Source: Verrucomicrobiaceae bacterium
Lineage (GTDB): Bacteria; Verrucomicrobiota; Verrucomicrobiia; Verrucomicrobiales; Verrucomicrobiaceae
NCBI GenBank assembly: GCA_019694165.1
Contig: JAIBCL010000020.1
Span: 1 to 64,000 of the forward strand
DNA: 64,000 nucleotides
Reading direction: 5' to 3'
In this document: one piece after another, positions 1 to 59,290 of the stretch
Layout of the letters: each line of letters starts with the position of its first letter
Numbering within the stretch: the first letter of the stretch is position 1
Made by a program: the position numbers and the translations under genes
Notes under the pieces: generated by a model
Database searches by the model: none
Seen by the model: the letters and a program-made list of their open reading frames with translations, nothing else
Told to the model about the DNA's origin: nothing

Positions 1-72
1 TTCGAGCAGCGCGACGGCGTCACGTTTGAACTGCTCGTCATAGGTGCGTTTTTTCGTTCCTGTCGTGTTCAT
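1..72 (-). CDS. IS3-family transposase OrfA, N-terminus only (runs off the window)
   Basis: The first 24 codons of an IS3/IS911-type OrfA start at an ATG at 72 and read off the left edge. The visible protein begins MNTTGTKKRTYDEQF and continues with KRDAVALLE. This is the usual start of the helix-turn-helix domain that binds the IS ends (K-R-x-Y-x-x-E/Q-F-K-x-x-A-V). The catalytic OrfB (DDE) would lie to the left, outside the window. A likely element end sits 23 bp upstream at 95-126, the normal spacing for IS3 elements. The family call rests on a short segment. Confidence 0.7.
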   Translation of the reverse strand, partial: MNTTGTKKRTYDEQFKRDAVALLE

Positions 73-94
73 GCTGATTTGGGTGGTTACCCAA

Positions 95-126
95 CTTTTG
101 CTGTCCACGAAAACGAAGAAGGCTCA
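95..126 (-). repeat. Putative terminal inverted repeat of the IS3-type element
   Basis: Read on the minus strand this 32-bp stretch begins TGAGCCTTCTTCG, and the OrfA start follows 23 bp later. An IS3 end usually begins with TG and lies just upstream of orfA. The same 32 bp occurs in the opposite orientation at 192-223 with a single mismatch. Confidence 0.55.
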
Positions 127-155
127 AATCGCTGGTGATTGAAGTGCCCCCGAGC

Positions 156-288
156 GGGGGAATGGGGTCGGGGGGAATGGGGTCGGGGGGATGAGCCTTC
201 TTCGTTTACGTGGACAGCAAAAGGGTCATGGGAATGGGGTCAGGGGTCATGGGAATGGCATGGGAATGGGGTCAGTGGGCATGGGAAT
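156..288. repeat. Short G-rich tandem and dispersed repeats
   Basis: A 15-bp unit (GGGGGAATGGGGTCG) occurs twice in tandem at 156-170 and 171-185. After the solitary IS end, the words CATGGGAATGG and GGGGTCAG recur several times up to 288, where the first REP-like repeat starts. The region has no credible gene. The units look like degenerate pieces of the REP-like repeat around the RAYT gene. Confidence 0.6.
192..223 (+). repeat. Solitary second copy of the IS end, facing the first
   Basis: This is a 31/32 match to the 95-126 IS end, on the other strand. The sequence after 223 turns at once into short G-rich direct repeats rather than IS sequence, so only the end survives. The two ends point away from each other across 65 bp. 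This suggests a second, almost completely deleted insertion or an aberrant transposition product. Confidence 0.5.
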
Positions 289-346
289 GGGGTCAGTGTG
301 CAACTGCTTGACAAATGCGCGGCTCTCGCTGAAAACGGGGCATGGC
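289..346 (+). repeat. REP-like repeat upstream of the RAYT gene (copy 1)
   Basis: The repeat starts GGGGTCAGTGTGCAACTGC and contains TTGACAAATGCGCGG. The same unit recurs at 2185 and, with a few changes, at 2353-2402. An inverted and diverged version lies downstream of the transposase in the 1405-1500 tandem pair. The repeat runs into the ATG of the transposase at 342. Confidence 0.7.
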
Positions 347-1403
347 ACGCAGCATTCGCATTCAATCCGCCGGGGCCTATTACCACGTCATGGCCCGCGG
401 CAACAGGCGCGAGGACATTTTCCATGCTGATGACGACCGGCGCTTCTTCCTGCACACGCTGGGCCAGGCCTGTGAGATGACGGGCTGGCGGGTGCAGGCG
501 TGGGTGCTGATGAGCAACCACTATCATCTCTTTCTCCAGACGCCGGAGCCGAACCTGGTGGCGGGGATGTCCTGGCTGCAAAACACCCTAACCCGCCGCT
601 ACAACGTGCGGCACCGGAAGTGGGGGCGGTTGTTTGGCGACCGCTACAAGGCGGTGGTGGTGGAGGGAGAGGATCGTTACCACTACCAGACGCTGATGGA
701 TTACATCCATCTCAACCCGGTGCGCGCGCGGATGATCCGCCCGAAAGCAGGGCAAAGCGTGCTGGATTACCCATGGAGCAGTGTGGCGGGTGGTTACGCT
801 TTGCCTGCGGCGAAGCGGGCGAAATGGCTGGACGCGGGGGCAGGCTTGAAGGCATTCAACCTGGCGGACACGGCGGCGGGCCGCAGAGGGATGGTGGAGC
901 GGCTGGACAAGCGGGCGGTGAGCGAGGAGACGAAGAGCTGCGGGGTGCCGCCGCAATCCGAGGAGGTGGATGCGCGGGCGAGCCACCTGAGGCGCGGATG
1001 GTATTGGGGCACGCAGGGCTTTGGCGAGGCGATACGCAAGCTGGGGCGGAAGCTCCTCAAGCAGGCCGCGCCTGTGTCGCGGGCCTATCAGAAGCATGAG
1101 CTGGTGCGGGAGCACGGGGAGCGGCAGGCGCGGGAATGGCTGGTACGGGGACTTAAGGCGGGAGGCATGAAATCGTCCGCGCTCTCCAAGGTGAAAGGTT
1201 CCGATTCACGGAAGGTGCTGCTGGCGGATCTGCTATGGCGGCGGACGGTGGTGTCGCAGGAGTGGCTGGCGGAGAAACTGGAGATGAAATCAGCGGCGAA
1301 TGTGAGCCAGCAGCTTCGCCGGCTTGACGTGAAGGAGGCGCTCAAGAAGGTGCCTGAGGAGTTGAAAACCTTTCTTGCCGAAGCCGATGCCACCAGACAA
1401 TGA
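342..1403 (+). CDS. REP-associated tyrosine transposase (RAYT, Y1/HUH family) with C-terminal HTH extension
   Basis: This is an intact 353-residue member of the Y1_Tnp family, single-strand DNA transposases that act on REP-type hairpins. The HUH metal motif is NHYHLF (His60, His62). The likely catalytic tyrosine is Tyr121 in YIHLNPVRA, preceded by the family's A-Y-Y-H-V start. Ordinary RAYTs end near residue 180. This one has about 170 further residues that include a helix-turn-helix-like stretch (WLAEKLEMKSAANVSQQLRR, near 310), probably DNA binding. The flanks carry REP-like repeats in opposite orientations. A 37-codon duplicate of the gene's 5' end lies at 2238. The start ATG sits inside the duplicated repeat and matches the family N-terminus. 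Confidence 0.92.
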   Translation: MARSIRIQSAGAYYHVMARGNRREDIFHADDDRRFFLHTLGQACEMTGWRVQAWVLMSNHYHLFLQTPEPNLVAGMSWLQNTLTRRYNVRHRKWGRLFGDRYKAVVVEGEDRYHYQTLMDYIHLNPVRARMIRPKAGQSVLDYPWSSVAGGYALPAAKRAKWLDAGAGLKAFNLADTAAGRRGMVERLDKRAVSEETKSCGVPPQSEEVDARASHLRRGWYWGTQGFGEAIRKLGRKLLKQAAPVSRAYQKHELVREHGERQAREWLVRGLKAGGMKSSALSKVKGSDSRKVLLADLLWRRTVVSQEWLAEKLEMKSAANVSQQLRRLDVKEALKKVPEELKTFLAEADATRQ

Positions 1404-1404
1404 G

Positions 1405-1500
1405 CGCCAATAGTTTGTCAGCCAGTTGCAGCCTGACCCCGTTTCCCGGGGTCGCCAATAGTTTGTCAGCCAGTTGCAGCCTGACCCCGTTTCCCGGGGT
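1405..1500 (-). repeat. Two tandem 48-bp REP-like repeats downstream of RAYT, inverted relative to the upstream copies
   Basis: Two identical 48-bp units (1405-1452, 1453-1500) start right after the transposase stop codon. Each ends in a hairpin, GACCCCG / CGGGGTC around a 5-nt loop. On the minus strand the unit reads GGGGTCAGGCTGCAACTGG and then CTGACAAA. Over 27 positions this differs from the upstream repeats at about four. Inverted REP units on both sides of a RAYT gene are the expected architecture for a REP-mobilising locus. Confidence 0.75.
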
Positions 1501-1503
1501 CGG

Positions 1504-1785
1504 ACATCCTTCTCGCCGATCCGCGTCCCTGGGCGACCCACACGAAACAGCGAAGACCCAAAGATTCTCGACATCGCCAAAGGAACAGGAACAGCTTCCG
1601 AGAAGTGTTCAGCTTGGGCAAAAGGGGCGAGAGGAGAGACGGATGTTTACATCGACAAAAGTCTGCTACAGGACATTGCAGACTCGAAAACGCGGACGGG
1701 TGATCATTTTTGGAAAGACGAATTGCCCGATCTACTGGAGTCGGTCCGAAACGGCTTAGTAACGATAAAATATCACTTCGAATGA
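1504..1785 (+). pseudogene. Unrecognised coding fragment, 5' end replaced by the repeat
   Basis: The frame is open from inside the tandem repeat, where a TTG at 1474 is the only upstream start, to a TGA at 1785. The last 50 residues (from TDVYIDKSLLQDIADSK through HFWKDELPDLLESVRNG) have normal protein composition and are the credible part. I do not recognise the family. Base composition drops well below that of neighbouring genes from about 1620. The absence of a native start makes this the 3' end of a gene cut by repeat insertion. The short, acidic, cargo-like C-terminus would fit a polymorphic-toxin tip, but that is a guess. Confidence 0.4.
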
Positions 1786-1817
1786 ACGGATCAATGGTGA
1801 TCGTATGATGAGATGCA

Positions 1818-2168
1818 ATGAACAACGCATCGATCAAGTTTTTTTCAGTCAGCCTGTCACGGATCGCGCAAGTCGTTCGATATCGCGATGAAATTGGCGA
1901 CCTTGAATTCGTTTTCGACGGGAGCGATCGGGAACCAAAGCCGGGTTGGGAGATTGATACCAGTCCGTTTCGAAGTTGTCGCGACAACCCCAATCAAGAT
2001 GTTTGTGATCCCCAGCGAATTGCCTTCGCGCTCGTGAAAGTGCGCGAGTTTCTTGACTCTCCGGACGCAAGAGCCTTTCTGGGTGTCAAATCACATCATC
2101 CAATCGACATTGGATGGAGGCCGGCACGTGAAAAACGGAAAGTTCCTGTGATGGGAGCCTTGGATTAG
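1818..2168 (+). CDS. Hypothetical protein (possible immunity-type partner of the preceding fragment)
   Basis: This 116-residue frame starts at an ATG 32 bp after the preceding fragment and ends at 2168. It contains plausible secondary-structure patterns (GWEIDTSPF, then RIAFALVKVREFLDSPDAR) and no recognisable domain, signal peptide or membrane segment. GC is visibly lower than in the housekeeping genes, as in the fragment upstream. Both are bracketed by REP-like repeats (1405-1500 and 2185-2402), so the pair probably arrived together. A toxin-tip and immunity arrangement is one explanation, with no motif support. Confidence 0.45.
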   Translation: MNNASIKFFSVSLSRIAQVVRYRDEIGDLEFVFDGSDREPKPGWEIDTSPFRSCRDNPNQDVCDPQRIAFALVKVREFLDSPDARAFLGVKSHHPIDIGWRPAREKRKVPVMGALD

Positions 2169-2184
2169 ATCTTTGGCTTGAAAC

Positions 2185-2348
2185 GGGGTCAGTGTGCAAC
2201 TGCTTGACAAATGCGCGGCTCTCGCTGAAAACGGGGCATGGCACGCAGCATTCGCATTCAATCCGCCGGGGCCTATTACCACGTCATGGCCCGCGGCAAC
2301 AGGCGCGAGGACATTTTCCATGCTGATGACGACCGGCGCTTCTTCCTG
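2185..2348 (+). repeat. 164-bp exact duplicate of 289-452 (REP-like repeat plus RAYT 5' end)
   Basis: Every base from 2185 to 2348 matches 289-452. The copy covers the upstream repeat and the first 37 codons of the transposase, then stops abruptly at 2348. A further repeat unit begins five bases later. Perfect identity means the copy is recent or maintained by conversion. Confidence 0.9.
2238..2348 (+). pseudogene. Truncated 5' fragment of the RAYT transposase
   Basis: The fragment encodes the first 37 residues of the intact 342-1403 protein (MARSIRIQSAG and on to DDRRFFL). It then reads out of homology into repeat sequence. It lacks the HUH motif and the catalytic tyrosine, so it cannot be functional. 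Confidence 0.85.
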
Positions 2349-2352
2349 GAAC

Positions 2353-2402
2353 GGGGTCAGTGTGCAACGGCTTGACAAATGCGCGGCTCTCACTGAAAAC
2401 GG
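2353..2402 (+). repeat. REP-like repeat, diverged copy
   Basis: The unit starts GGGGTCAGTGTGCAACGGC and differs at only two or three positions from the copies at 289 and 2185. It sits between the RAYT fragment and the second RAYT gene. Confidence 0.7.
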
Positions 2403-2463
2403 ACACAAACAGGGGTCAGGGAACGATTCATGAGAAACTTATGATAAATGGATAGATCGGCCC

Positions 2464-2856
2464 ATGCCGAGACAGTTGAGAATTCAATATGCCGGGGCCG
2501 TTTATCATGTGCTGGCTCGCGGAGATCGGAGGGAAGACATCGTCCAGGATGATGAAGACCGTGAGCTGTTTGTGGCGACGCTGGCCGAGGCGTGCAAGAA
2601 GACGGGCTGGGAAGTGCTGGCCTGGGTGCTGATGGACAACCATTACCACTGCTGGCTGATCCGCACGCCGGAGCCGAATCTCGTCGAAGGAATGAAGTGG
2701 TTTCAGAATGCCTACACCCGGCGCTTCAATGCACGGCACAAGCTCTGGGGGGGGAGCTGTTTGGCGGCAGGTGCAAGACGATTTCGGTGCAGGCGGACGG
2801 CGCGGGCGCGGGTGATTGCCGCGAGATGCTGATGGATCACATTCATCTCGATCCGC
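2464..2856 (+). pseudogene. Second RAYT transposase, frameshifted and truncated
   Basis: The frame from ATG 2464 gives a second Y1 transposase start (MPRQLRIQYAGAVYHVLARG) with an intact HUH motif NHYHCW (His60, His62). A run of eight G at about 2747-2754 shifts the frame. The family continues in another frame as GELFGGRCK and MLMDHIHLDP. The position of the catalytic tyrosine (D-Y-I-H-L-N-P in the intact copy) reads D-H-I-H-L-D-P. Homology ends near 2856. Two separate defects, the frameshift and the lost tyrosine, mark a dead gene. It is not a duplicate of the first RAYT; the two have diverged considerably. Confidence 0.85.
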
Positions 2857-2884: not shown

Positions 2885-3034
2885 CGGCATGTCGTCTGTC
2901 ATGGGTGTGCCGTGTTCAGCGCCCCGATTCGCGATCTATCCGACGCCGGTTTCCAAGACGGCGGGCGTGTGAACCACAATGGTGTCGTCACGATCACCCA
3001 GGCGCTGGCGGAAGCGCTCGCGGAGCACGATTGA
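2885..3034 (+). pseudogene. 3' remnant of an unidentified gene
   Basis: One frame is open from about 2885 to a TGA at 3032-3034. It encodes FSAPIRDLSDAGFQDGGRV, followed by NHNGVVTITQALAEALAEHD. The composition is normal for this genome, but there is no start codon and no upstream continuation. The piece looks like the last 40-50 residues of a gene whose rest was removed during events at the RAYT locus. No family is recognised. Confidence 0.3.
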
Positions 3035-3151: not shown

Positions 3152-4675
3152 TTGCCGCCCGTGTCGAATCCTTTTGCCAGCCGAGTTCTCGCCAGCTTTG
3201 AGAAGCATCGCGCCTTGCCGGCGCTGCGGATCGAAGGCGGGGAGTGGACGTATGGGGATCTGCTCTCCGCTGCGGAAGTCCAGGCGGGGGCGTGGGTCAG
3301 GTCGCTGCCACCCGGCCCTGTGGGAGTGCTCGCCGCGCGGTCACACGCGGGCTTCGCCGCGATCCTGGCATGCGTGGGTGCTGGGCGCGCCTATGTGCCG
3401 CTGCACCCGAAGTTTCCAGTCGCGCGGCTCGCCACGATGGCCGCTGCCGCGGGGTGCGCGGGCATCATCGCGCACGACGAGGCGCTCGCGACGCTGCAGG
3501 AGCTTCAACGCGTTCTCGGCGGTGGGTGGCGGCGGGAGGGGGGGAGGCTGGTGCATCAGCCAGAGCTGGACCTGGACTCCGGTCATCATGCGCGTGGCAC
3601 GGTGAACGGTGGCTTCGCGTACATTCTTTTTACCTCGGGCACCACGGGGCGCCCGAAGGGCATCGGCATCACGCCGTGCAATGTCTGCGCCTATCTGGAT
3701 CACGCCACGAGGACGTTCGGCGTGCAGCCCGGCGACCGTGCCTCGCAGATGTTCGAGCTGACCTTCGACCTCAGCGTGCACGACCTGTTTGTGACATGGC
3801 TCGGCGGTGGTCTGCTGTGCGTGCCACCCGCGGGCGCGGTGATGGCACCCGCGCGCTTCATCATCGACGAGCGCATCACGCACTGGTTCTCCGTGCCATC
3901 GACCGCGTCGATCCTCTCGAGACTGCGGCTGCTGCGGGAGGGGGCGTTTCCCTCCCTGCGGCAGAGCCTTTTCTGCGGCGAAGCGCTGCCGTCCGCCATC
4001 GCCGCGCAATGGTGCGGTGCCGCGCCCGGCTCCTCGCTGACAAATCTTTACGGCCCCACCGAAGCCACCATTGCGATCACTGCGCACGCCTGGGCGCCAG
4101 ATGCCGGCCAGGCGCACGCTGTGGTGCCCATCGGCAGGGCTTTCCCCGGCCAGCGTACGCGCATCGTCATCGACGGGTGCGATGCGCCGCCCGGTCAGGC
4201 GGGTGAACTGTGGCTCGGCGGCACGCAGGTCTCGCCGGGCTATCTGGACGATCCGGAAAAGACGGCCGCTGCCTTTGTCACGTCCGATGACTCCGGCGCG
4301 GTGTGGTATCGGACCGGTGATCTGGTGCGCGAAGACGCGCGCGGCGTCCTGCATTTCCTGGGCCGGCTCGACACCCAGGTGCAACTCCACGGGCACCGGG
4401 TGGAACTCGGCGAAGTCGAAGGTACGGTGCGGAATGTGTGCGGCGGCAGGATGTGCGCGGTGGTTCCCTGGCCGCCGCGCCAGTCTGCGGTCGAGAGCCT
4501 CGTGGCCTTCGTCGAAGGTGCCGGGGGTGCTGCGGACGCCGCAGCTTTGCGTGCGGCGCTCGGCAAGGTTCTGCCGGACTATATGGTGCCGGCCCGGATT
4601 GTTTACCTGCCTGCCTTGCCGCTGAATGCCAACGGCAAGATCGACCGTGTCACCCTCGCTTCCTCGATTCCATGA
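3152..4675 (+). CDS. AMP-forming amino-acid adenylating ligase (NRPS A-domain / DltA-like)
   Basis: This stand-alone adenylation protein of 507 residues should activate a carboxylate with ATP and load it on the phosphopantetheine of a carrier protein. Core motifs are all present: LFTSGTTGRPKG at 159-170, NLYGPTEATI near 299, RTGDL near 386, GRLDTQVQLHGHRVELGE near 403 and the catalytic-lysine motif NGKIDR near 493. The segment FDLSVHDLF (205-213) has the aspartate that holds the alpha-amino group in amino-acid-specific A domains, as in DltA, so an amino acid is the likely substrate. Start is TTG 3152 or GTG 3161. The stop overlaps the next gene's ATG by 4 bp, and that gene encodes the carrier. 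There is no condensation or thioesterase domain nearby. The exact substrate cannot be read from the sequence. Confidence 0.88.
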   Translation: MPPVSNPFASRVLASFEKHRALPALRIEGGEWTYGDLLSAAEVQAGAWVRSLPPGPVGVLAARSHAGFAAILACVGAGRAYVPLHPKFPVARLATMAAAAGCAGIIAHDEALATLQELQRVLGGGWRREGGRLVHQPELDLDSGHHARGTVNGGFAYILFTSGTTGRPKGIGITPCNVCAYLDHATRTFGVQPGDRASQMFELTFDLSVHDLFVTWLGGGLLCVPPAGAVMAPARFIIDERITHWFSVPSTASILSRLRLLREGAFPSLRQSLFCGEALPSAIAAQWCGAAPGSSLTNLYGPTEATIAITAHAWAPDAGQAHAVVPIGRAFPGQRTRIVIDGCDAPPGQAGELWLGGTQVSPGYLDDPEKTAAAFVTSDDSGAVWYRTGDLVREDARGVLHFLGRLDTQVQLHGHRVELGEVEGTVRNVCGGRMCAVVPWPPRQSAVESLVAFVEGAGGAADAAALRAALGKVLPDYMVPARIVYLPALPLNANGKIDRVTLASSIP

Positions 4676-5472
4676 GTGCTTCCGACCTGCAGAACCAAGT
4701 CCGCGATTTTCTCATCCAGAAGACTGGTGCCGGGGGCATCGGCCCGGATGAAGACCGTGCACTGATGGGGGCGGGGCTGCTTGATTCCTTCGGACTCGTG
4801 ACGCTGCTGGCGGAGGTCGAGGCGAGGTTCGGTGTGTTTCCTGATCTGATGGTGCACGACCCCGGCGACTACAGCACGCTGAATGGTCTCACGAACATCA
4901 TTCTGCAGAACCTCGGCGTCGCGCCGGTCAGCACACAGGCGAAGCAGCCTTCGCACGCGTCGTCGCCGGTTCACGCGCGCCCGGACCTCGTGCGAATCGA
5001 ACGGCTTCACGCCGCGCATCCGCTTTGGGCCGCGCTGCCGCCGCTCTTCAAGCAGATGTTTGATGACTTCGCGTCCACCGGCCTGCGGCTGCCCCTCGTC
5101 GATGGCGGCGAGCACCTGTGGCTCAAGAGCATCGAGGGTCTGCCAGACAATGTGTTCTTCGTCGCCGGCGCGGTGCGTGACGATGCGCTTCAAGGCTTCA
5201 TCACCGCCAGGATGAAACTGCTGCCCGCTTATCTCGGCGGACAGCATGTCGGCGAGGTGGCGCATCTTTGCGTCCGGCCTGCCGCGCGACGCCACGGGGT
5301 TGCCACCGGGCTTGCCTCGGCGGCGACGGCCTGGTGCCGCGACCGTGGTGCCGCCAGCGTGGAATTGCAGGTGCTGAGCCATAATGCCGGCGCGCTGGCA
5401 TTCTGGCGGCAACAGGGCTTCGAACCGGAACTCATTCAGCTTCGACGGAATCGCGGTGACGCGAGCTTCTAA
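4672..5472 (+). CDS. Acyl/peptidyl carrier protein fused to a GNAT acetyltransferase
   Basis: This 266-residue protein starts at an ATG that overlaps the ligase stop (ATGA). Residues 1-85 form a carrier domain with the phosphopantetheine serine in GAGLLDSFGLV (Ser39). A linker at about 86-110 leads to a GNAT domain (about 110-266). The acetyl-CoA-binding motif A is HLCVRPAARRHGVATG (about 199-213), and the LSHNAGALAFWRQQGFEP segment near 235 is typical of GNAT enzymes. The ligase presumably loads an amino acid onto Ser39. The GNAT domain may then acylate that amine, or move the loaded group to another acceptor. The chemistry is inference; the fusion and coupling are visible. Holo-ACP synthase (acpS) is encoded at 14806. 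Confidence 0.88.
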   Translation: MSASDLQNQVRDFLIQKTGAGGIGPDEDRALMGAGLLDSFGLVTLLAEVEARFGVFPDLMVHDPGDYSTLNGLTNIILQNLGVAPVSTQAKQPSHASSPVHARPDLVRIERLHAAHPLWAALPPLFKQMFDDFASTGLRLPLVDGGEHLWLKSIEGLPDNVFFVAGAVRDDALQGFITARMKLLPAYLGGQHVGEVAHLCVRPAARRHGVATGLASAATAWCRDRGAASVELQVLSHNAGALAFWRQQGFEPELIQLRRNRGDASF

Positions 5473-6318: not shown

Positions 6319-7082
6319 CGCGCCCCTCGAGTGACCCGTCTCCGGTGACCCGTCTGGGTGCTGGCGGCGACAGAAAAAAGCGCGGCTGGCTCGCACCGGT
6401 GTCCTGGAGCGTGGCGGCAGTCTTTGCCGCCGCCGCCGCCCTTTATTCGAGTGCGACGGCCCGCGAGGTGGCGGCGGAGTCCGCGCGCACGATTTTTCAG
6501 ATCGTCACGTCGCCTTTTGTCCTGGAGGCTACGCTCGCCATCCTCGGCTTGTGCATCGTCATTGCCATCAATCAACGGCGCATTCAGAAGGAAGGGGACG
6601 GGTGGGTTTTCCTGGAGACCCACGAGCCTGCCACGGATGCGTCGGAAGCGTCGGATCCCCCTCATCGTCATGACGGCGTGGTCTGGCAGGAAAAGCCCGG
6701 CGCTTTTGACGATGCAGGCACCTCGCTCGAAGTGGCGGAGGGCTACCTCGACCTGGGGCTCGGCGAGGATGCCCTTCGCGAGCTGGAGTCCATGCCGGCG
6801 GCGGCGCGCGAGCAGGAAAAAGCCGTTGGTCTGCGAATCCGTGCGCTCGTGATGACGGGGCAGGGCACGGCTGCCGCAACAGCCTTCACCGACTGGATGC
6901 GGGGCCACGGCGGGGGCGGCACATTTCTGGCAGAGGCCGCTCTCGCTTCCGCGCTCTGGCTGCACGGGAATGTTCCAGGTGCCGAGGCCGGCACCTGGCT
7001 GGCACGGGCGCGCGACGCGGACGGAGCAGTCGTCGAAAAGCTGCCCCGGCAGCATCCGCTGCGCGGGTTTCTTGTCCCCTGA
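6315..7082 (+). CDS. Membrane protein with TPR-like C-terminal half, function unknown
   Basis: The start overlaps the rodZ-like stop (ATGA), so the two are translationally coupled. Two hydrophobic segments, about 28-46 and 66-86, anchor the N-terminus. The rest is soluble and Ala/Glu/Leu-rich, with helical repeats that resemble TPRs (SLEVAEGYLDLGLGEDALRE near 139). No catalytic motif is seen. Coupling to a RodZ-like protein suggests a scaffold role in envelope or cell-shape work, by context only. Confidence 0.75.
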   Translation: MTRPSSDPSPVTRLGAGGDRKKRGWLAPVSWSVAAVFAAAAALYSSATAREVAAESARTIFQIVTSPFVLEATLAILGLCIVIAINQRRIQKEGDGWVFLETHEPATDASEASDPPHRHDGVVWQEKPGAFDDAGTSLEVAEGYLDLGLGEDALRELESMPAAAREQEKAVGLRIRALVMTGQGTAAATAFTDWMRGHGGGGTFLAEAALASALWLHGNVPGAEAGTWLARARDADGAVVEKLPRQHPLRGFLVP

Positions 7083-7189
7083 GCATCAGACGGGACGCAT
7101 CGGCAAGCGGGCGGCAGTCGTGCCGCGCACACGCGCGGAAAAGCTGTTTGCATCCAGCGGGCGCTTTGCTACTGGACGCGCCGCTATCT

Positions 7190-7597
7190 ATGAAAGTAGT
7201 GATGATTTACGGCAGCGCGAACGACCAGGGCTTCATGAAGCCGGGTCGTGATTATCTGGACGAGCAGAAGGTGGCCTACTCGGAGCATGTGCTCTCGGCG
7301 CACCGCAACCTGCCGGAGCTGATCGACTTCCTGCGCGAGCTGGACAAAAGCACCGAGAAGATCGTCGTCCTCGCCATCGCCGGCCTGGCGGCTGCGCTCC
7401 CGGGCGTGGTGACGGTGACGACGAGATTCCCCGTCGTCGGCGTGCCGGTGCCGGGAGGTCCGCTCAACGGCATCGACGCACTGCTCTCCATCTCGCAGCT
7501 TCCCGGCGGTGTGCCCTGCGGCACGGTCGGCCTGCACAGCAAGGCGGGACTGAATGCTTGCATGTTCGCGCATCGAATTCTTAAATTGGCCGAGTGA
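7190..7597 (+). CDS. purE: N5-carboxyaminoimidazole ribonucleotide mutase (PurE, class I type)
   Basis: PurE moves the carboxylate from N5-CAIR to give CAIR in purine synthesis. The start MKVVMIYGSANDQGFMKPGR carries the substrate-binding G-S-x-x-D motif. LSAHR follows near residue 36 and GVPVPGGPLNGIDALLSI near 85, as in the family. The protein has 135 residues against about 160 in E. coli, with the difference mostly at the C-terminus. I chose ATG 7190; an upstream in-frame start adds non-homologous residues. The stop overlaps the GTG of pyrR. purK is not in the window. Confidence 0.86.
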   Translation: MKVVMIYGSANDQGFMKPGRDYLDEQKVAYSEHVLSAHRNLPELIDFLRELDKSTEKIVVLAIAGLAAALPGVVTVTTRFPVVGVPVPGGPLNGIDALLSISQLPGGVPCGTVGLHSKAGLNACMFAHRILKLAE

Positions 7598-8151
7598 GTT
7601 CCGATCCCAACCAACGCCTCCTGCTCGACAAGGCCGCCATGGCCGGGGCGGTGAAGCGTTTGGCGAAGGAAATCTGCGAGAAAAACCGCGGCGCGCGGCA
7701 GCTCGCGCTCATCGGCATTCACAAGCGCGGCGTGCCGCTCGCCTGGCGCATCGCCGATGAAATGCGTGGCATGGACTGCACGGAAGTGCTCGTCGGCACC
7801 GTGGACATCACGCAGTATCGCGACGATCTCGCGATGATGAAAATGGTGCCGAAGCTCGAAGGCTCGGACATTCCCTTCGACATCGACGATGCGCAGGTCG
7901 TGCTTTGCGACGAGGTGCTCTTCACCGGCCGCAGTGTGCGCGCGGCGATCAATGAACTGCTCGATCACGGACGGCCCGCGCGCGTGCAGCTCGCCGTGCT
8001 CATCGATCGCGACGGGCGAGAGTTTCCGATCCAGCCCGACTACATCGGCGAGCGTGTGACCATCGGCCCCGAAGAACGCGTGGCCGTGCGCTTTGAAGAA
8101 GTCGATGGCGACGACGCCGTGCATGTGCAAACCTCGAAAGCCGTGAAATGA
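7594..8151 (+). CDS. pyrR: PyrR: pyrimidine regulatory protein / uracil phosphoribosyltransferase
   Basis: This 185-residue phosphoribosyltransferase-fold protein has the PRPP loop VVLCDEVLFTGRS at about 102-114. The PyrR-type VGTVDITQYRDDL (67-79) and the C-terminal Asp/Glu-rich tail are also present. In Firmicutes PyrR binds pyr mRNA attenuators and also makes UMP from uracil and PRPP. It starts at a GTG overlapping purE by 4 bp and overlaps pyrB by 4 bp, so no attenuator leader fits between these genes. Confidence 0.9.
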   Translation: MSSDPNQRLLLDKAAMAGAVKRLAKEICEKNRGARQLALIGIHKRGVPLAWRIADEMRGMDCTEVLVGTVDITQYRDDLAMMKMVPKLEGSDIPFDIDDAQVVLCDEVLFTGRSVRAAINELLDHGRPARVQLAVLIDRDGREFPIQPDYIGERVTIGPEERVAVRFEEVDGDDAVHVQTSKAVK

Positions 8152-14062: not shown

Positions 14063-14809
14063 ATGCCCATCCACCTCGGCGTCAATATCGACCACGTCGT
14101 CACCCTTCGTCAGGCGCGCTACCGCGAGATGCTCGACTCTCCGAACGCCGAACCTTCGGTGCTTCAGGCCGCCCTCGAAGCGGAGGCCGCAGGCGCGCAC
14201 TCGATCACCGTTCACCTTCGCGCGGATCGCCGGCATATTCAGGATGCCGACGTGCGTCTGCTGCGGAAGGAGATCGCCACGAAGCTCAATCTCGAAATGG
14301 GCAACACGCCCGAGATTCTCGCCATCGCGCTCGATGTACGGCCCGACTTCGTCTGCATGGTGCCCGAGCATCGCCAGGAAGTGACGACCGAAGGTGGTCT
14401 CGATGTCGCCGGACAAAAAGAAGTGCTGCGCGACACCGTCTCGAAGCTGCAAGCGAACGGCACCAACGTCAGCATGTTCATCGATCCCGATCTCGATCAA
14501 GTCCGCGCCTCCGCCGAGATCGGTGCTCGCATGATCGAGCTTCACACCGGCACTTTCGCCAATCACCTCGGCGCCGAGCGCGCGAAGGAAGTCGCGCGAC
14601 TCAAGGCAGCGGCCGAACTTGGTCACTCGCTCGGTCTTCAAATCAACGCCGGCCACGGTCTAACGACGAAGAACATCGCGGACCTCTTCGTCGTTCCGCA
14701 TCTCGCCGAGCTGAACATTGGCCATCACATCGTTTCACGAGCCGTCTTCATCGGTCTGCGCACCGCCGTGAAGGAAATGCTCGATGCCATCACCCCTTAT
14801 CGCGGATGA
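14063..14809 (+). CDS. pdxJ: Pyridoxine 5'-phosphate synthase
   Basis: PdxJ condenses 1-deoxyxylulose 5-phosphate with aminoacetone phosphate to pyridoxine 5'-phosphate. The start MPIHLGVNIDHVVTLRQARY is diagnostic. MVPEHRQEVTTEGGLDV near 107, FIDPDLDQ near 140 and INAGHGLT near 195 are family motifs of this TIM barrel. The length is 248 residues. It overlaps acpS by 4 bp, the pdxJ-acpS pairing known from many bacteria. Confidence 0.96.
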   Translation: MPIHLGVNIDHVVTLRQARYREMLDSPNAEPSVLQAALEAEAAGAHSITVHLRADRRHIQDADVRLLRKEIATKLNLEMGNTPEILAIALDVRPDFVCMVPEHRQEVTTEGGLDVAGQKEVLRDTVSKLQANGTNVSMFIDPDLDQVRASAEIGARMIELHTGTFANHLGAERAKEVARLKAAAELGHSLGLQINAGHGLTTKNIADLFVVPHLAELNIGHHIVSRAVFIGLRTAVKEMLDAITPYRG

Positions 14810-15231
14810 GCCTCAGCGCGATTTTGCACAAGAACTCTGGCGTGATCGGCATCGGCCTCGATCTCATCGAAGTCTCCCGCATCCGTGATCTGCTGGAGCG
14901 TCACGGTGAACGGTTCAAGGCCCGCACCTTCACGGTTGACGAGATCGCCTACTGTGACCGCTGCGCCGATCCCGCGATGCACTACGCCGCCCGCTTCGCT
15001 GCCAAAGAAGCCGCCGCCAAGGCGCTGAGCACCGGATTCGCCGATGGCGTGAGCTGGCAGGACATCGAGATCGCTCGCGCGGAAAACGGCGCGCCGCGCC
15101 TCGTGCTGCACGGTGGCGCGTTGTCGCTGGCGCAGGCCCGGGGCATCACCCAGATGCTGGTCTCGCTCACGCATGTGAAGGAAATGGCGGCCGCGCAGGT
15201 GGTGCTGGGAGCCGGCCCGGCGGCGGGATGA
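14806..15231 (+). CDS. acpS: Holo-[acyl-carrier-protein] synthase
   Basis: AcpS transfers 4'-phosphopantetheine from CoA to carrier-protein serines. GIGLDLIEVSRIRDLLER (with the Mg-binding Asp) near 16 and FAAKEAAAKALSTGF (with the catalytic Glu) near 64 are the two family signatures. The length of 141 residues is slightly long. It is translationally coupled to pdxJ. It is a natural candidate to activate the carrier-GNAT protein at 4672 as well as fatty-acid ACP. Confidence 0.95.
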   Translation: MSLSAILHKNSGVIGIGLDLIEVSRIRDLLERHGERFKARTFTVDEIAYCDRCADPAMHYAARFAAKEAAAKALSTGFADGVSWQDIEIARAENGAPRLVLHGGALSLAQARGITQMLVSLTHVKEMAAAQVVLGAGPAAG

Positions 15232-55994: not shown

Positions 55995-57602
55995 TCACCG
56001 TCCCTCGCGTCCGAGATCCGGCATCGGCGGAAGAATCAGCACGCGCAACGAGTCGAAGGTGATCTCGCCCCGCTTGTTGTCGGTTTGGATGGAGATGGAG
56101 AGCCGGTCCGGAGCATCGGCTCCTCTCGCGGGCAGGCCGAAGGAAATTTCGTTTGGTCCCCCGTCCAGATTCAAGTGCAACGGCCAGGACGGCGCGGTGG
56201 CATCGCCGTTCCTTTGCTCGAGCTGCCACTTCAAGACCCCTGTGCACGGCATGGTGATGCGTGCTTGCACCACAGGCGCGGCGTGTGCATCGGCCTCGTG
56301 CAGAGCGAGCGGTACGAACAGCGCCACGCGGTCCTGGGTGGCGCGCAGCCGCAACGGGCCTCGCTCATTCACTGGCTGCCGCGGACGGGTGGTCACGCCG
56401 CTCCAGCCCCTCGTCGAATCGAACTGCACCTGTGCCCTGCCGCCTGCGTTCGCGACGCGCTCCTTCCACGCCGGGCTTTGGATCACCCGCGCCTCCTCGC
56501 CGGTGCACGGACGATTGTGGAAGAACAGGCGCTCGGCGCTCTCCAACAGTACGACCTGCGGTTTGAGTTCGAGAACCTTGGCTGGCGAAAAATACCTTCC
56601 CTGGAACAGGTCCACTGAAGAAAACGTCTGCGCGAGAAAAGGCAGCAGCGCCTCGGAAAACGAGTCCCCGAAGACCAGCACGCGCTGCTCGATGAGCGGT
56701 GCGCTGTTCGCGGTGCGGCGCATCCGCTGCACGGGATCGGCGGTGGTTTGAAACGTCCAACCGTTTGGCGGCGCGATCACGGGAGAGTCATTCGGCCAGT
56801 CACGGCGATACGTCTCCGTAATGCCAAGCATCGTGGCGAGATCGTGATACGGATGCGTCTCCGGATCTACGCGGCTTTGCAGCGTGGCGCCACTGAGACC
56901 GTGCGTTTCGAGGCTGAGCCGCTTCAGGATTTCACGATATGCGACGAGTGCTCCGGCATCGTTCCAATGGCTGTCACCGCGCAGGTAAAGCGGCTCACGC
57001 AACTTTCGGGCAGTCGTCAGCGGTGTGAGCAGATCGACCGGCTGGCCATCGCGTCCCTCCCCAAAACGCAGGAAATCCTCCATGGTCGAAGGTTGCTTCA
57101 CCCGTGGAATGCCGGTCGGCATGAACTCGGGATACACGGACTCTTTTGCAGGGGCGATCACATGTGCGCTTGCGATGCCTTGATTGCGCAGCCAGCGATG
57201 ACGCATCTCCAAGGCATCGGCGACATAAGCTGAGTCGGCGTCAGTGAAGCGGTCAATGCCTTGGAAGAGCGGCACGGAACGATCGCCGGTGAAGAACAGC
57301 CAGCCATCGCGGCCGACGATCACGCTGTCGGTGGTGGAGATGCCGAAGACTTTCCAGTTCAGCCACGCATCTGTCTTGATGAGCGCGTTGCGAAATGCGA
57401 AGCGATCGGAGAATGCGTTCTCAAATTGTTTCGCCGCACCTGCGGCATCCTTCTTCAGTTCGGCGAGAGTCGGCCAAGGCGTCGGCGTGCGCTTTTCCTC
57501 GATGCCGGCGTTGAACTGCCAGCCCGCGAGCCAACCCGCCGCCGGGATGAAGATCACGGCGAGGAAAAGGGTGACGAGCGAAGTCTGGCAAAAGCGCATC
57601 AT
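55995..57602 (-). CDS. AlgJ/AlgX-like SGNH-type acetyltransferase partner
   Basis: The N-terminus from ATG 57602 (MMRFCQTSLVTLFLAVIFIP) is a membrane anchor or signal. The body matches the ALGX/DHHW family: FENAFSDRFAFRNALIKTD near 60, GRDGWLFFTGD near 100, YLRGDSHWNDAGALVAY (catalytic His/Asp) near 205 and VFGDSFSEALLPFL (Ser) near 308. The C-terminal 130 residues are beta-rich and may bind carbohydrate. With the MBOAT gene upstream it forms an O-acetylation pair for an exported polysaccharide. A 180-bp palindromic element sits between the two genes. Confidence 0.85.
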   Translation of the reverse strand: MMRFCQTSLVTLFLAVIFIPAAGWLAGWQFNAGIEEKRTPTPWPTLAELKKDAAGAAKQFENAFSDRFAFRNALIKTDAWLNWKVFGISTTDSVIVGRDGWLFFTGDRSVPLFQGIDRFTDADSAYVADALEMRHRWLRNQGIASAHVIAPAKESVYPEFMPTGIPRVKQPSTMEDFLRFGEGRDGQPVDLLTPLTTARKLREPLYLRGDSHWNDAGALVAYREILKRLSLETHGLSGATLQSRVDPETHPYHDLATMLGITETYRRDWPNDSPVIAPPNGWTFQTTADPVQRMRRTANSAPLIEQRVLVFGDSFSEALLPFLAQTFSSVDLFQGRYFSPAKVLELKPQVVLLESAERLFFHNRPCTGEEARVIQSPAWKERVANAGGRAQVQFDSTRGWSGVTTRPRQPVNERGPLRLRATQDRVALFVPLALHEADAHAAPVVQARITMPCTGVLKWQLEQRNGDATAPSWPLHLNLDGGPNEISFGLPARGADAPDRLSISIQTDNKRGEITFDSLRVLILPPMPDLGREGR

Positions 57603-57645
57603 GATGATCTCGCTCTTCGCTTGTTCGAGACCGCCCGCCAAACTT

Positions 57646-57825
57646 CCCCCTCACCCCAGCCCTCTCCCCACGGGAGAGGGAGCCAGAGGCGCTGACGCGC
57701 CGAGCTGCTGAGCAGAACGAGTTCCTTTTGTATCGACCAATCCCATGCCGTTGGCTCCACCTTTGTCGTCGGCGCGGAGCGCCATCGTCTCCCTCTCCCG
57801 ATGGGAGAGGGATGGGGTGAGGGGG
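57646..57825. repeat. 180-bp element with 23-bp inverted ends
   Basis: The 23-bp end at 57646-57668 is matched in inverse at 57803-57825 with one mismatch (left end CCCCCTCACCCCAGCCC). Each end adjoins its own hairpin, CTCTCCC-CAC-GGGAGAG and CTCTCCC-GAT-GGGAGAG. No gene is seen inside. It is a MITE/REP-like element between the MBOAT and AlgJ-like genes. Confidence 0.65.
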
Positions 57826-57868
57826 ACAACGACTCGGTGTGCGGTTTTGATTTCATGAGCGCATCTCC

Positions 57869-59290
57869 CTAAAAGCGGAAATAGATGAACGGGTTGTAGG
57901 ACCGGTTCGCCAGCGAGGCGATGCACACGATGAACAAGCTCAATGCACACGCGAGCTTCAGCAGATTCACCGGCGCGCTGCCGCCAAGCTTTTCTTTGAG
58001 CCACGGCAACACGGGGAACATGCCGATGGCGCCGATGACGATCATCGTGAGCAAGCGAGCATCGAGCCAAGTCGCGGCATTGGCAGTCGGGATGATCGTC
58101 TCATTGCGACTCAATCCGATCATGCGCCCCATCAGCACACCAGCGTGATGAAAGGTGTCCGCACGGAAGAGCACCCAGCCAAAGATCCAGACGAGCATCG
58201 TGTAGCTCCAGCTCACGGCTTTGGGCAAGCGTTCCAGTTTGGCACCGAGCCCGACGCGTTCGATCACGAGAAACGCACCGTGATACAAGCCCCAAGCGAT
58301 GAAACTCCACGCCGCGCCGTGCCAGAGACCGCAGAGAAAAAACACGAGCAGCAGATTGAATCCGGTGCGCACGCTGCCGTGGCGATTGCCGCCGAGCGGG
58401 ATGTAGAGGTAGTCGCGAAACCAGGTCGAGAGCGAGATGTGCCAGCGCCGCCAGAACTCCTGCACGGAGCAGGCGACATACGGGTAATTGAAGTTCTCGC
58501 GGAAGTGGATGCCGAACATGCGGCCGAGGCCGAGCGCCATGTCGGAGTAGGCGGAGAAATCGAAGTAGATCTGCAGCGCGTAGCAAATCGCCGCCAGCCA
58601 CGCGAGCGGTGTCGTCACCTCGGCAAGCGGCAGCGCGTGAATGCCATCAACTGGCACGGCGACTGTGTTCGCGATCAGCACCTTTTTGCCGAGGCCGACG
58701 ATGAAGCGACTGACGCCTGCCGCGAAGTCGTCGAGCAAAGACCGGCGGGACTCGATCTCCTCGAAGATGTCCTTGTAGCGCACGATCGGCCCTGCGATGA
58801 GCTGCGGGAAAAGCGTGATGTAGAGCGCGAGATCGTGCAGCTTTCGCTGCGCAGGCACCTGGCCGCGGCTGACGTCGATGATGTAGCTGAGCGCGTGAAA
58901 CGTGTAGAAGGAGATGCCGATCGGCAGATGCACGGTCGGGATCGCGAGATCCTTCATGCCCATCGAGTGCAGCAGCGGGTTTAGCGCCTGCACAATGAAG
59001 CCAGCGTATTTGTAAAACGCGAGCAACGCCAGATTCACCGTCACCGCGACGACCACGATGGCCCGCCTGCCGTTCGCCTTCTCCGCCAGCAGGCCGAAGA
59101 CATAATTCAATCCGATGCTCGTCAGCATGAGCAGCGTGTAGCCGCCCTCGCCCCACGCGTAGAACAGCAGGCTCATCGCCAGCAGCACCATGTTCCGCGC
59201 ATCCGTCGAGCGCGCGAGCCAGTAAAGCACCAGCGTCAGCGGCAGGAAGAGAAACAGAAAGACGGGTGAGGCGAAGACCATGGAACGCAA
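57869..59290 (-). CDS. MBOAT-family O-acyltransferase (AlgI-like)
   Basis: This 473-residue multi-pass protein has the MBOAT motifs: FYTFHALSYIIDVSRGQ near 125, CSVQEFWRRWHISLSTWFRD near 270 and the catalytic histidine in LCGLWHGAAWSFIAWG near 315. AlgI-type proteins pass acetyl groups across the membrane to a periplasmic SGNH partner, here the AlgJ-like protein downstream. No alginate genes are present, so another polysaccharide is acetylated. Confidence 0.92.
   Translation of the reverse strand: MRSMVFASPVFLFLFLPLTLVLYWLARSTDARNMVLLAMSLLFYAWGEGGYTLLMLTSIGLNYVFGLLAEKANGRRAIVVVAVTVNLALLAFYKYAGFIVQALNPLLHSMGMKDLAIPTVHLPIGISFYTFHALSYIIDVSRGQVPAQRKLHDLALYITLFPQLIAGPIVRYKDIFEEIESRRSLLDDFAAGVSRFIVGLGKKVLIANTVAVPVDGIHALPLAEVTTPLAWLAAICYALQIYFDFSAYSDMALGLGRMFGIHFRENFNYPYVACSVQEFWRRWHISLSTWFRDYLYIPLGGNRHGSVRTGFNLLLVFFLCGLWHGAAWSFIAWGLYHGAFLVIERVGLGAKLERLPKAVSWSYTMLVWIFGWVLFRADTFHHAGVLMGRMIGLSRNETIIPTANAATWLDARLLTMIVIGAIGMFPVLPWLKEKLGGSAPVNLLKLACALSLFIVCIASLANRSYNPFIYFRF

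What the first reader, a model, noticed from the sequence alone, without database searches (positions are those of the whole stretch)
3152..5472. Amino-acid-type ligase coupled to a carrier-protein/GNAT fusion
A stand-alone A domain with the amino-group-binding aspartate (FDLSVHDLF) is followed, with an ATGA overlap, by one protein combining a carrier domain and a GNAT domain. There are no condensation or thioesterase domains. This could load an amino acid, modify it on the carrier and hand it on, as a minimal two-gene thiotemplate. I know of no described pathway with this exact layout.
Basis: partly seen in the sequence, partly recalled or inferred. Interest (0 to 1): 0.7.

Follow-up and report, generated by a model that had tools for sequence, protein, structure and literature searches.

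The report
Carrier-bound amino-acid cassette for surface acylation
Two bacterial genes probably load an amino acid onto a carrier protein and cap its nitrogen so that a membrane export pair can attach it to a cell-surface polymer, a new twist on the known D-alanine (Dlt) system, although the matching export genes next to them have been wrecked in this genome.

Summary
In detail: an amino-acid-type adenylation (A) protein (3161-4675) overlaps by ATGA a carrier-GNAT fusion (4672-5472), and all core motifs are intact. The same pair, with the same overlap and fusion, occurs in one of 56 related genomes searched (G033, another genus of the family; 58% and 47% identity). There it sits directly behind an MBOAT and an SGNH gene, so it is not a free-standing two-gene pathway but the loading half of a Dlt-like surface-acylation operon. 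In the window only a decayed C-terminal scrap of the SGNH gene (2912-3034) remains upstream, next to transposase debris. The genome's reciprocal-best MBOAT-SGNH pair lies on another contig.

In Bacteroidota the same parts recur with the GNAT unfused (A, GNAT, ACP, MBOAT; five loci). The GNAT there belongs to a different subfamily, so GNAT seems to have been recruited more than once.

Most likely reading: the A protein loads a small amino acid onto Ser39, GNAT N-acylates it on the carrier, and an MBOAT with a built-in FXYXXF acyl-shuttle motif plus SGNH pass it to an extracytoplasmic polymer. Substrate, acyl donor and acceptor are inferred, not shown. This is a new variant of the Dlt/MBOAT-SGNH kind. 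No description was found in the papers searched.

The parts
2912..3034 (+). Decayed 3' end of an SGNH (DltD/AlgJ-like) acyltransferase gene; reads ...FQDGGRVNHNGVVTITQALAEALAEHD*, with the catalytic-type DxxH changed to DGGR
   Evidence: 27-residue ungapped match to the C-terminus of the SGNH protein on contig C9 of the same genome, score 82 (best of 1000 shuffles 48; first among 1108 control peptides of the window, the next scoring 54); in frame with TGA 3034; same place in the operon as SGNH in G033
3161..4675 (+). Stand-alone adenylation protein (amino-acid type); probable start GTG 3161 rather than TTG 3152; pocket residues DLHTLCLIA-K
4672..4929 (+). Carrier (ACP/PCP) domain; phosphopantetheine Ser39 = codon 4786-4788 (LLDSFGL)
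4930..4986 (+). Ala/Pro/Ser-rich linker between carrier and GNAT domains, poorly conserved
4987..5469 (+). GNAT domain fused to the carrier; acyl-CoA P-loop RRHGVA at about 5287-5304
1..2832 (+). REP-associated (IS200-like) transposase genes and repeats (342-1403; truncated copy 2464-2832; duplicated block 286-452 / 2182-2348) found where the upstream half of the operon would be expected; the contig starts at window position 1

Best explanation
The two genes are the loading half of a Dlt-like MBOAT-SGNH acylation system. The A protein activates an amino acid with ATP and loads it onto the 4'-phosphopantetheine of Ser39. The fused GNAT N-acylates (most simply N-acetylates, from acetyl-CoA) the amino group of the carrier-bound amino acid in cis. 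The N-acyl-aminoacyl thioester is taken by an MBOAT to the Tyr of its own C-terminal FXYXXF motif, then by an SGNH protein to a polymer outside the cytoplasmic membrane. Shown here: the domains, the conserved pair and fusion, the physical link to MBOAT-SGNH in G033, the recurrence of A+GNAT+ACP+MBOAT in Bacteroidota, the FXYXXF motif, and the decayed SGNH scrap. Inferred: amino acid, acyl donor, order of steps, polymer, and that in this genome the pair works with the MBOAT-SGNH pair on contig C9.
For: G033: MBOAT (478 aa) - SGNH (327) - A (509) - ACP-GNAT (258), all on one strand with short or overlapping junctions. Bacteroidota: A-GNAT-ACP-MBOAT in L052 and L078 (SGNH-like gene next), L072, and L073 (GDSL-like gene between ACP and MBOAT); A-formyltransferase-ACP-GNAT-MBOAT in L071; A-ACP-MBOAT without GNAT in L077, L079. 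MBOATs of G033, C9, L071, L072, L073, L077, L078, L079 end in FXYXXF, the motif shown to carry the acyl group in PatA and DltX (PMC12148441). Reciprocal best match of the C9 and G033 MBOATs (62-63%; next 38% in the own genome and 50% in G033). SGNH remnant upstream of the pair. Asp235-type residue and DltA-like FCGE in the pocket. GNAT P-loop kept. N-acetyl-alanyl and N-acetylglycyl groups are known on bacterial polysaccharides (PMC3210612; there amide-linked).
Against: The fused form with MBOAT in place is seen in one genome only. No biochemistry. The A-domain code DLHTLCLIA matches no substrate that I know. A relatives also occur in clusters without MBOAT, some with GNAT (L074, L075, G538), so the cassette need not always feed an MBOAT. 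The window's own SGNH is a pseudogene fragment and no cognate MBOAT lies beside it, so the system may be dead here.
Confidence: 0.6

Rival explanations
1. The GNAT is the final transferase: it uses the aminoacyl-carrier thioester as donor and moves the amino acid onto an amine (an amino sugar or another small amine), and the MBOAT next door has its own acetyl-CoA-type job.
For: A-GNAT-ACP sets without MBOAT occur in Bacteroidota sugar clusters (L074, L075), and ACP, GNAT and A lie close together in an exopolysaccharide cluster (G538). GNAT-fold proteins that take acyl-ACP as donor exist (AHL synthases, FeeM; own knowledge). Most MBOAT-SGNH pairs of this family stand without any carrier protein.
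Against: The acyl-CoA pyrophosphate loop is kept in most of these GNATs. Loci with A-ACP-MBOAT and no GNAT exist (L077, L079), so the MBOAT can probably take the carrier product directly. In cis fusion to the carrier fits modification of the bound group at least as well.
Confidence: 0.22
2. In this genome the pair is a non-functional or idle left-over of a broken operon (compatible with the best explanation for the intact relatives).
For: SGNH reduced to a C-terminal scrap whose DxxH has become DGGR; no MBOAT adjacent; transposase repeats and the contig edge upstream. No second SGNH fragment of this type found in the genome. No promoter-like site directly upstream in a simple consensus scan.
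Against: Both reading frames are intact over 2.3 kb with all catalytic motifs and normal third-position GC. An orthologous MBOAT-SGNH pair survives on contig C9 and could serve in trans.
Confidence: 0.35
3. A free-standing small-molecule pathway: the pair makes a diffusible N-acyl amino acid or derivative.
For: No MBOAT beside the pair in the window.
Against: Operon context in G033 and Bacteroidota is MBOAT/SGNH, and no releasing enzyme is present.
Confidence: 0.08

Closest known systems
Dlt system (DltA, DltC, DltB, DltX, DltD)
   Same: A protein loads an amino acid on a small carrier; MBOAT and SGNH partners in the same operon in the relative; FXYXXF acyl-shuttle motif; FCGE in the A pocket
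   Different: A protein groups outside the genome's own DltA and scores 275 bits on TIGR01734 against a cut-off of 560; GNAT fused to the carrier; shuttle motif on the MBOAT itself instead of a DltX microprotein. A separate Dlt-type operon exists in the same genome.
AlmE-AlmF-AlmG (glycine on Vibrio cholerae lipid A)
   Same: Stand-alone A protein plus carrier feeding surface modification. The PDB chain 4oxi ('enterobactin synthetase component F-related protein'; from memory this is AlmE) scores 262 bits, above DltA chains at about 198
   Different: Final transferase is an LPLAT-type protein, no MBOAT/SGNH, no GNAT
PatA-PatB / AlgI-AlgJ type MBOAT-SGNH O-acetylation
   Same: MBOAT with C-terminal FXYXXF and a separate SGNH protein
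   Different: Those use acetyl-CoA and no carrier protein (PMC12148441)
Linear gramicidin synthetase initiation module (formyltransferase-A-PCP)
   Same: Amino group of a carrier-bound amino acid is acylated by a dedicated domain (own knowledge; best PDB sequence match of the A protein is LgrA)
   Different: Formyltransferase instead of GNAT, part of an NRPS. L071 has a free formyltransferase gene in this operon type.
GNAT-ACP loading modules of polyketide synthases (CurA type)
   Same: GNAT and ACP in one protein
   Different: Order GNAT-ACP, no A protein, loads acetyl from malonyl-CoA onto the ACP (own knowledge)

Membership tests
Dlt D-alanylation system | A protein is DltA (reaches the DltA model; D-Ala-specific) | tested here: not met
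   TIGR01734 275 bits vs cut-off 559.85; tree places it apart from the genome's own DltA; substrate not testable
Dlt D-alanylation system | DltC-like carrier with intact Ser | tested here: inconclusive
   TIGR01688 E 3.3e-6, 27.1 bits, below cut-off 52.35; DSF intact
Dlt D-alanylation system | MBOAT and SGNH partners in the operon | tested here: inconclusive
   Met in G033; in the window only a decayed SGNH end remains
Dlt D-alanylation system | Separate DltX microprotein; DltB without the shuttle motif | tested here: not met
   G033 and C9 MBOATs end in FIYFQF themselves. In G033 there is no room for a DltX gene between the four genes, whose junctions overlap or are about 30 nt
MBOAT-SGNH acyltransferases | MBOAT domain, FXYXXF C-terminus, SGNH partner | tested here: met
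   For G033: PF03062 E 7e-19, FIYFQF, adjacent SGNH-like protein with GNSS and DxxH by reading (Pfam GDSL only E 0.002). Not in the window itself
NRPS | Condensation or terminal release domain with A and PCP | tested here: not met
   None in either protein; none seen among the neighbours
AlmEFG | LPLAT-type AlmG partner | not tested
   No such gene was recognised by reading beside the pair in the window or in G033, but neither neighbourhood nor genome was searched with an LPLAT model
GNAT superfamily acyltransferase | GNAT domain with acyl-CoA P-loop | tested here: met
   PF00583 E 1.4e-15, RRHGVA; nearest PDB sequence match 3jvn, an acetyltransferase

The most novel reading that the evidence does not exclude
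A carrier-protein-fed MBOAT-SGNH system that exports and attaches an N-acylated amino acid, with the N-acyltransferase (GNAT, and in one locus also a formyltransferase) working on the carrier-bound residue. GNATs of different subfamilies were recruited to it more than once, and the MBOAT-SGNH pair is combined with interchangeable carrier-loading cassettes (A/ACP-GNAT; FkbH/ACP/MaoC-SDR; none).
Probability: 0.45. Interest if true: 0.72.

Novelty: new variant of a known kind. Interest (0 to 1): 0.55.

Why it matters
[quoted passage not shown] The loci here are carrier-protein-fed MBOAT-SGNH operons outside Dlt, with the shuttle motif built into the MBOAT and a GNAT added. If right, bacteria can build quite different acyl groups on a carrier and export them through a common membrane pair. 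That would widen the chemistry of surface modification and give a simple test bed for which acyl groups an MBOAT accepts.

Tried and rejected
Scan of genome contigs with the ACP-GNAT protein: no relative. Phylum sample of 388 genomes with the ACP-GNAT profile: only the own genome and a lone GNAT in G067 that is not linked to a carrier. Plasmids by tblastn: no match. Single-sequence AlphaFold2 of the fusion failed (mean pLDDT 40), so no fold comparison was made; relatives from the genome search are not among the permitted inputs, so no deeper model was tried. Orthology of the window GNAT with the Bacteroidota GNATs: not supported beyond the common fold (phmmer no hit at E<=10; hhalign probability 32%), so those are treated as a probable separate recruitment. 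Assigning a substrate from the pocket residues: given up, as the code matches nothing I know. That the C9 MBOAT-SGNH was once directly joined to the pair: not provable, since the C9 SGNH has its own complete tail and the linking repeats are multicopy. 'A free two-gene pathway' was set aside after the G033 operon was found.

Full report
What is there. The window begins at the first base of contig C23 of a 7.8 Mb genome in 66 contigs; the group is probably Verrucomicrobiota, but that is my inference and is not shown by a tool. The first protein is a stand-alone adenylation protein of the amino-acid type. The second begins in the ATGA overlap at 4672 and carries a carrier domain (Ser39 in LLDSFGL) and, after an Ala/Pro/Ser-rich linker, a GNAT domain with the loop RRHGVA. 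The start of the first gene is more likely GTG 3161 than TTG 3152. Third-position GC is normal for the window.

Relatives. Among the own genome and 56 relatives one other genome, G033 of another genus in the family, has the pair: A protein 58-59%, ACP-GNAT 47%, same fusion, same 4-base overlap. In G033 the pair is preceded, on the same strand, by an MBOAT gene (L041 5593-7029) and an SGNH-like gene (7004-7987; GNSS and DKAH by reading) that ends about 30 bases before the A gene. The MBOAT ends in FIYFQF, the FXYXXF acyl-shuttle motif whose Tyr is acylated in PatA and in DltX (PMC12148441).

What happened in the window. Directly upstream of the A gene, in frame with TGA 3034, is a 40-residue scrap. 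Its last 27 residues match the C-terminus of the SGNH protein encoded on contig C9 of the same genome (score 82; no shuffle above 48; the best of all 1108 comparable peptides of the window, the next being 54), and the catalytic-type His of DxxH has become Arg. Everything further upstream to the contig start is rich in REP-associated transposase genes and multicopy repeats. No other SGNH fragment of this type is found in the genome. The MBOAT on contig C9 is the reciprocal best match of the G033 MBOAT, but there it follows a different cassette: an FkbH-like protein, an ACP and a MaoC-SDR fusion. The pair may thus work in trans with the C9 MBOAT-SGNH, or be idle.

The same parts elsewhere. A scan of 84,980 species genomes with the A profile gave a Bacteroidota record (Flavipsychrobacter stenotrophus MAG, L052) with A - GNAT - ACP - MBOAT - SGNH-like (weak ALGX match) genes. 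In 299 genomes of that order, nine more had a near A protein: A-GNAT-ACP-MBOAT in L072 and L078, the same with a GDSL-like gene before the MBOAT in L073, A-formyltransferase-ACP-GNAT-MBOAT in L071, A-ACP-MBOAT without GNAT in L077 and L079, A-GNAT-ACP in sugar-gene clusters in L074 and L075, and A without carrier or MBOAT in L076. The GNATs of L071 and L078 have no Pfam match of their own and are called GNAT by homology to L052, L072 and L073. So six of the eight MBOAT-linked A loci examined have a GNAT. The five Bacteroidota GNATs are related to one another but not detectably to the window-G033 GNAT beyond the fold, and L074-L075 form a third group. GNAT therefore seems to have been joined to this loader more than once, which argues that it acts on the loaded group. 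These loci were picked for A-protein similarity, so their grouping apart from DltA and NRPS domains in the tree is partly a result of the choice; what the tree does show is that the window A protein is not the genome's DltA.

Mechanism. The pocket has the amino-group Asp and the FCGE seen in the genome's own DltA; the code DLHTLCLIA is shared by window and G033 and nearly by G538, but I cannot assign a substrate. The pocket positions were placed by motif, from memory of the GrsA numbering. The most economical scheme is: aminoacyl-AMP, aminoacyl-S-carrier, N-acylation by the fused GNAT, transfer by MBOAT to its own C-terminal Tyr, transfer by SGNH to a polymer. Steps one and two rest on family knowledge, step three on the recurrence and the kept P-loop, steps four and five on the G033 operon, the motif and PMC12148441. 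The chief rival is that GNAT itself moves the amino acid to an amine, which the clusters without MBOAT would allow. A candidate phosphopantetheinyl transferase (AcpS-like by reading) lies at 14806-15231, beside a PdxJ-like gene at 14063-14809; no special link is claimed.

Known or new. Dlt and AlmEFG are described two-protein amino-acid loaders for surface polymers (PMC3783018). PatAB and AlgIJ are MBOAT-SGNH pairs without carriers. In the family of the window most relatives of the C9 MBOAT likewise stand with an SGNH gene and no carrier, two with an ACP fusion next door. The combination of a carrier loader, a GNAT and a shuttle-bearing MBOAT was not found in the papers searched, which cover open-access text only. 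The genome's own Dlt-type operon has a DltX-like ORF ending in FVYQGF and an MBOAT without the motif, a useful contrast. I file the finding as a new variant of a known kind, with the caveat that in this particular genome the system is broken at its upstream end.

Noticed in passing
L050 (own genome, contig C9) 3269-8961, - strand: FkbH-like - ACP - MaoC-SDR fusion - MBOAT - SGNH operon: another carrier-fed MBOAT-SGNH system with quite different loading chemistry.
   Followed up: partly
L002 (own genome, contig C57) 7-4184: Dlt-type operon (SGNH/DltD-like, DltC, DltX-like ORF ending FVYQGF, DltA, MBOAT) in the same genome.
   Followed up: partly
L093 6021-12596 and L099 7297-13783: MBOAT-SGNH pairs followed by an ACP fused to a long stretch with no Pfam match; in L093 next come methylmalonyl-CoA-mutase-type subunits.
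   Followed up: partly
L071 5102-5950: A formyltransferase gene (PF00551) sits between the A and ACP genes of an A-ACP-GNAT-MBOAT operon, possibly a second N-modifier of the carrier-bound amino acid.
   Followed up: no
L058 7021-12733 and L059: Near relatives of the A protein in exopolysaccharide clusters: exosortase-like - A - ACP - KASIII-like - FkbH-like in G442; ACP, GNAT, LbH and A genes in G538.
   Followed up: partly
L074 4811-7381 and L075 1037-3583: A - GNAT - ACP trio inside Bacteroidota sugar-biosynthesis clusters without MBOAT; GNAT of a third subfamily.
   Followed up: partly
window 55995-59290, - strand: A separate MBOAT (ends FIYFRF) with an ALGX-type SGNH partner, an alginate-acetylation-like pair.
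   Followed up: partly
window 1-2832: REP-associated transposase genes with multicopy repeats (16 matches in the genome to the 2160-2450 block), also 3' of the SGNH gene on contig C9 (L050 2374-2834).
   Followed up: partly
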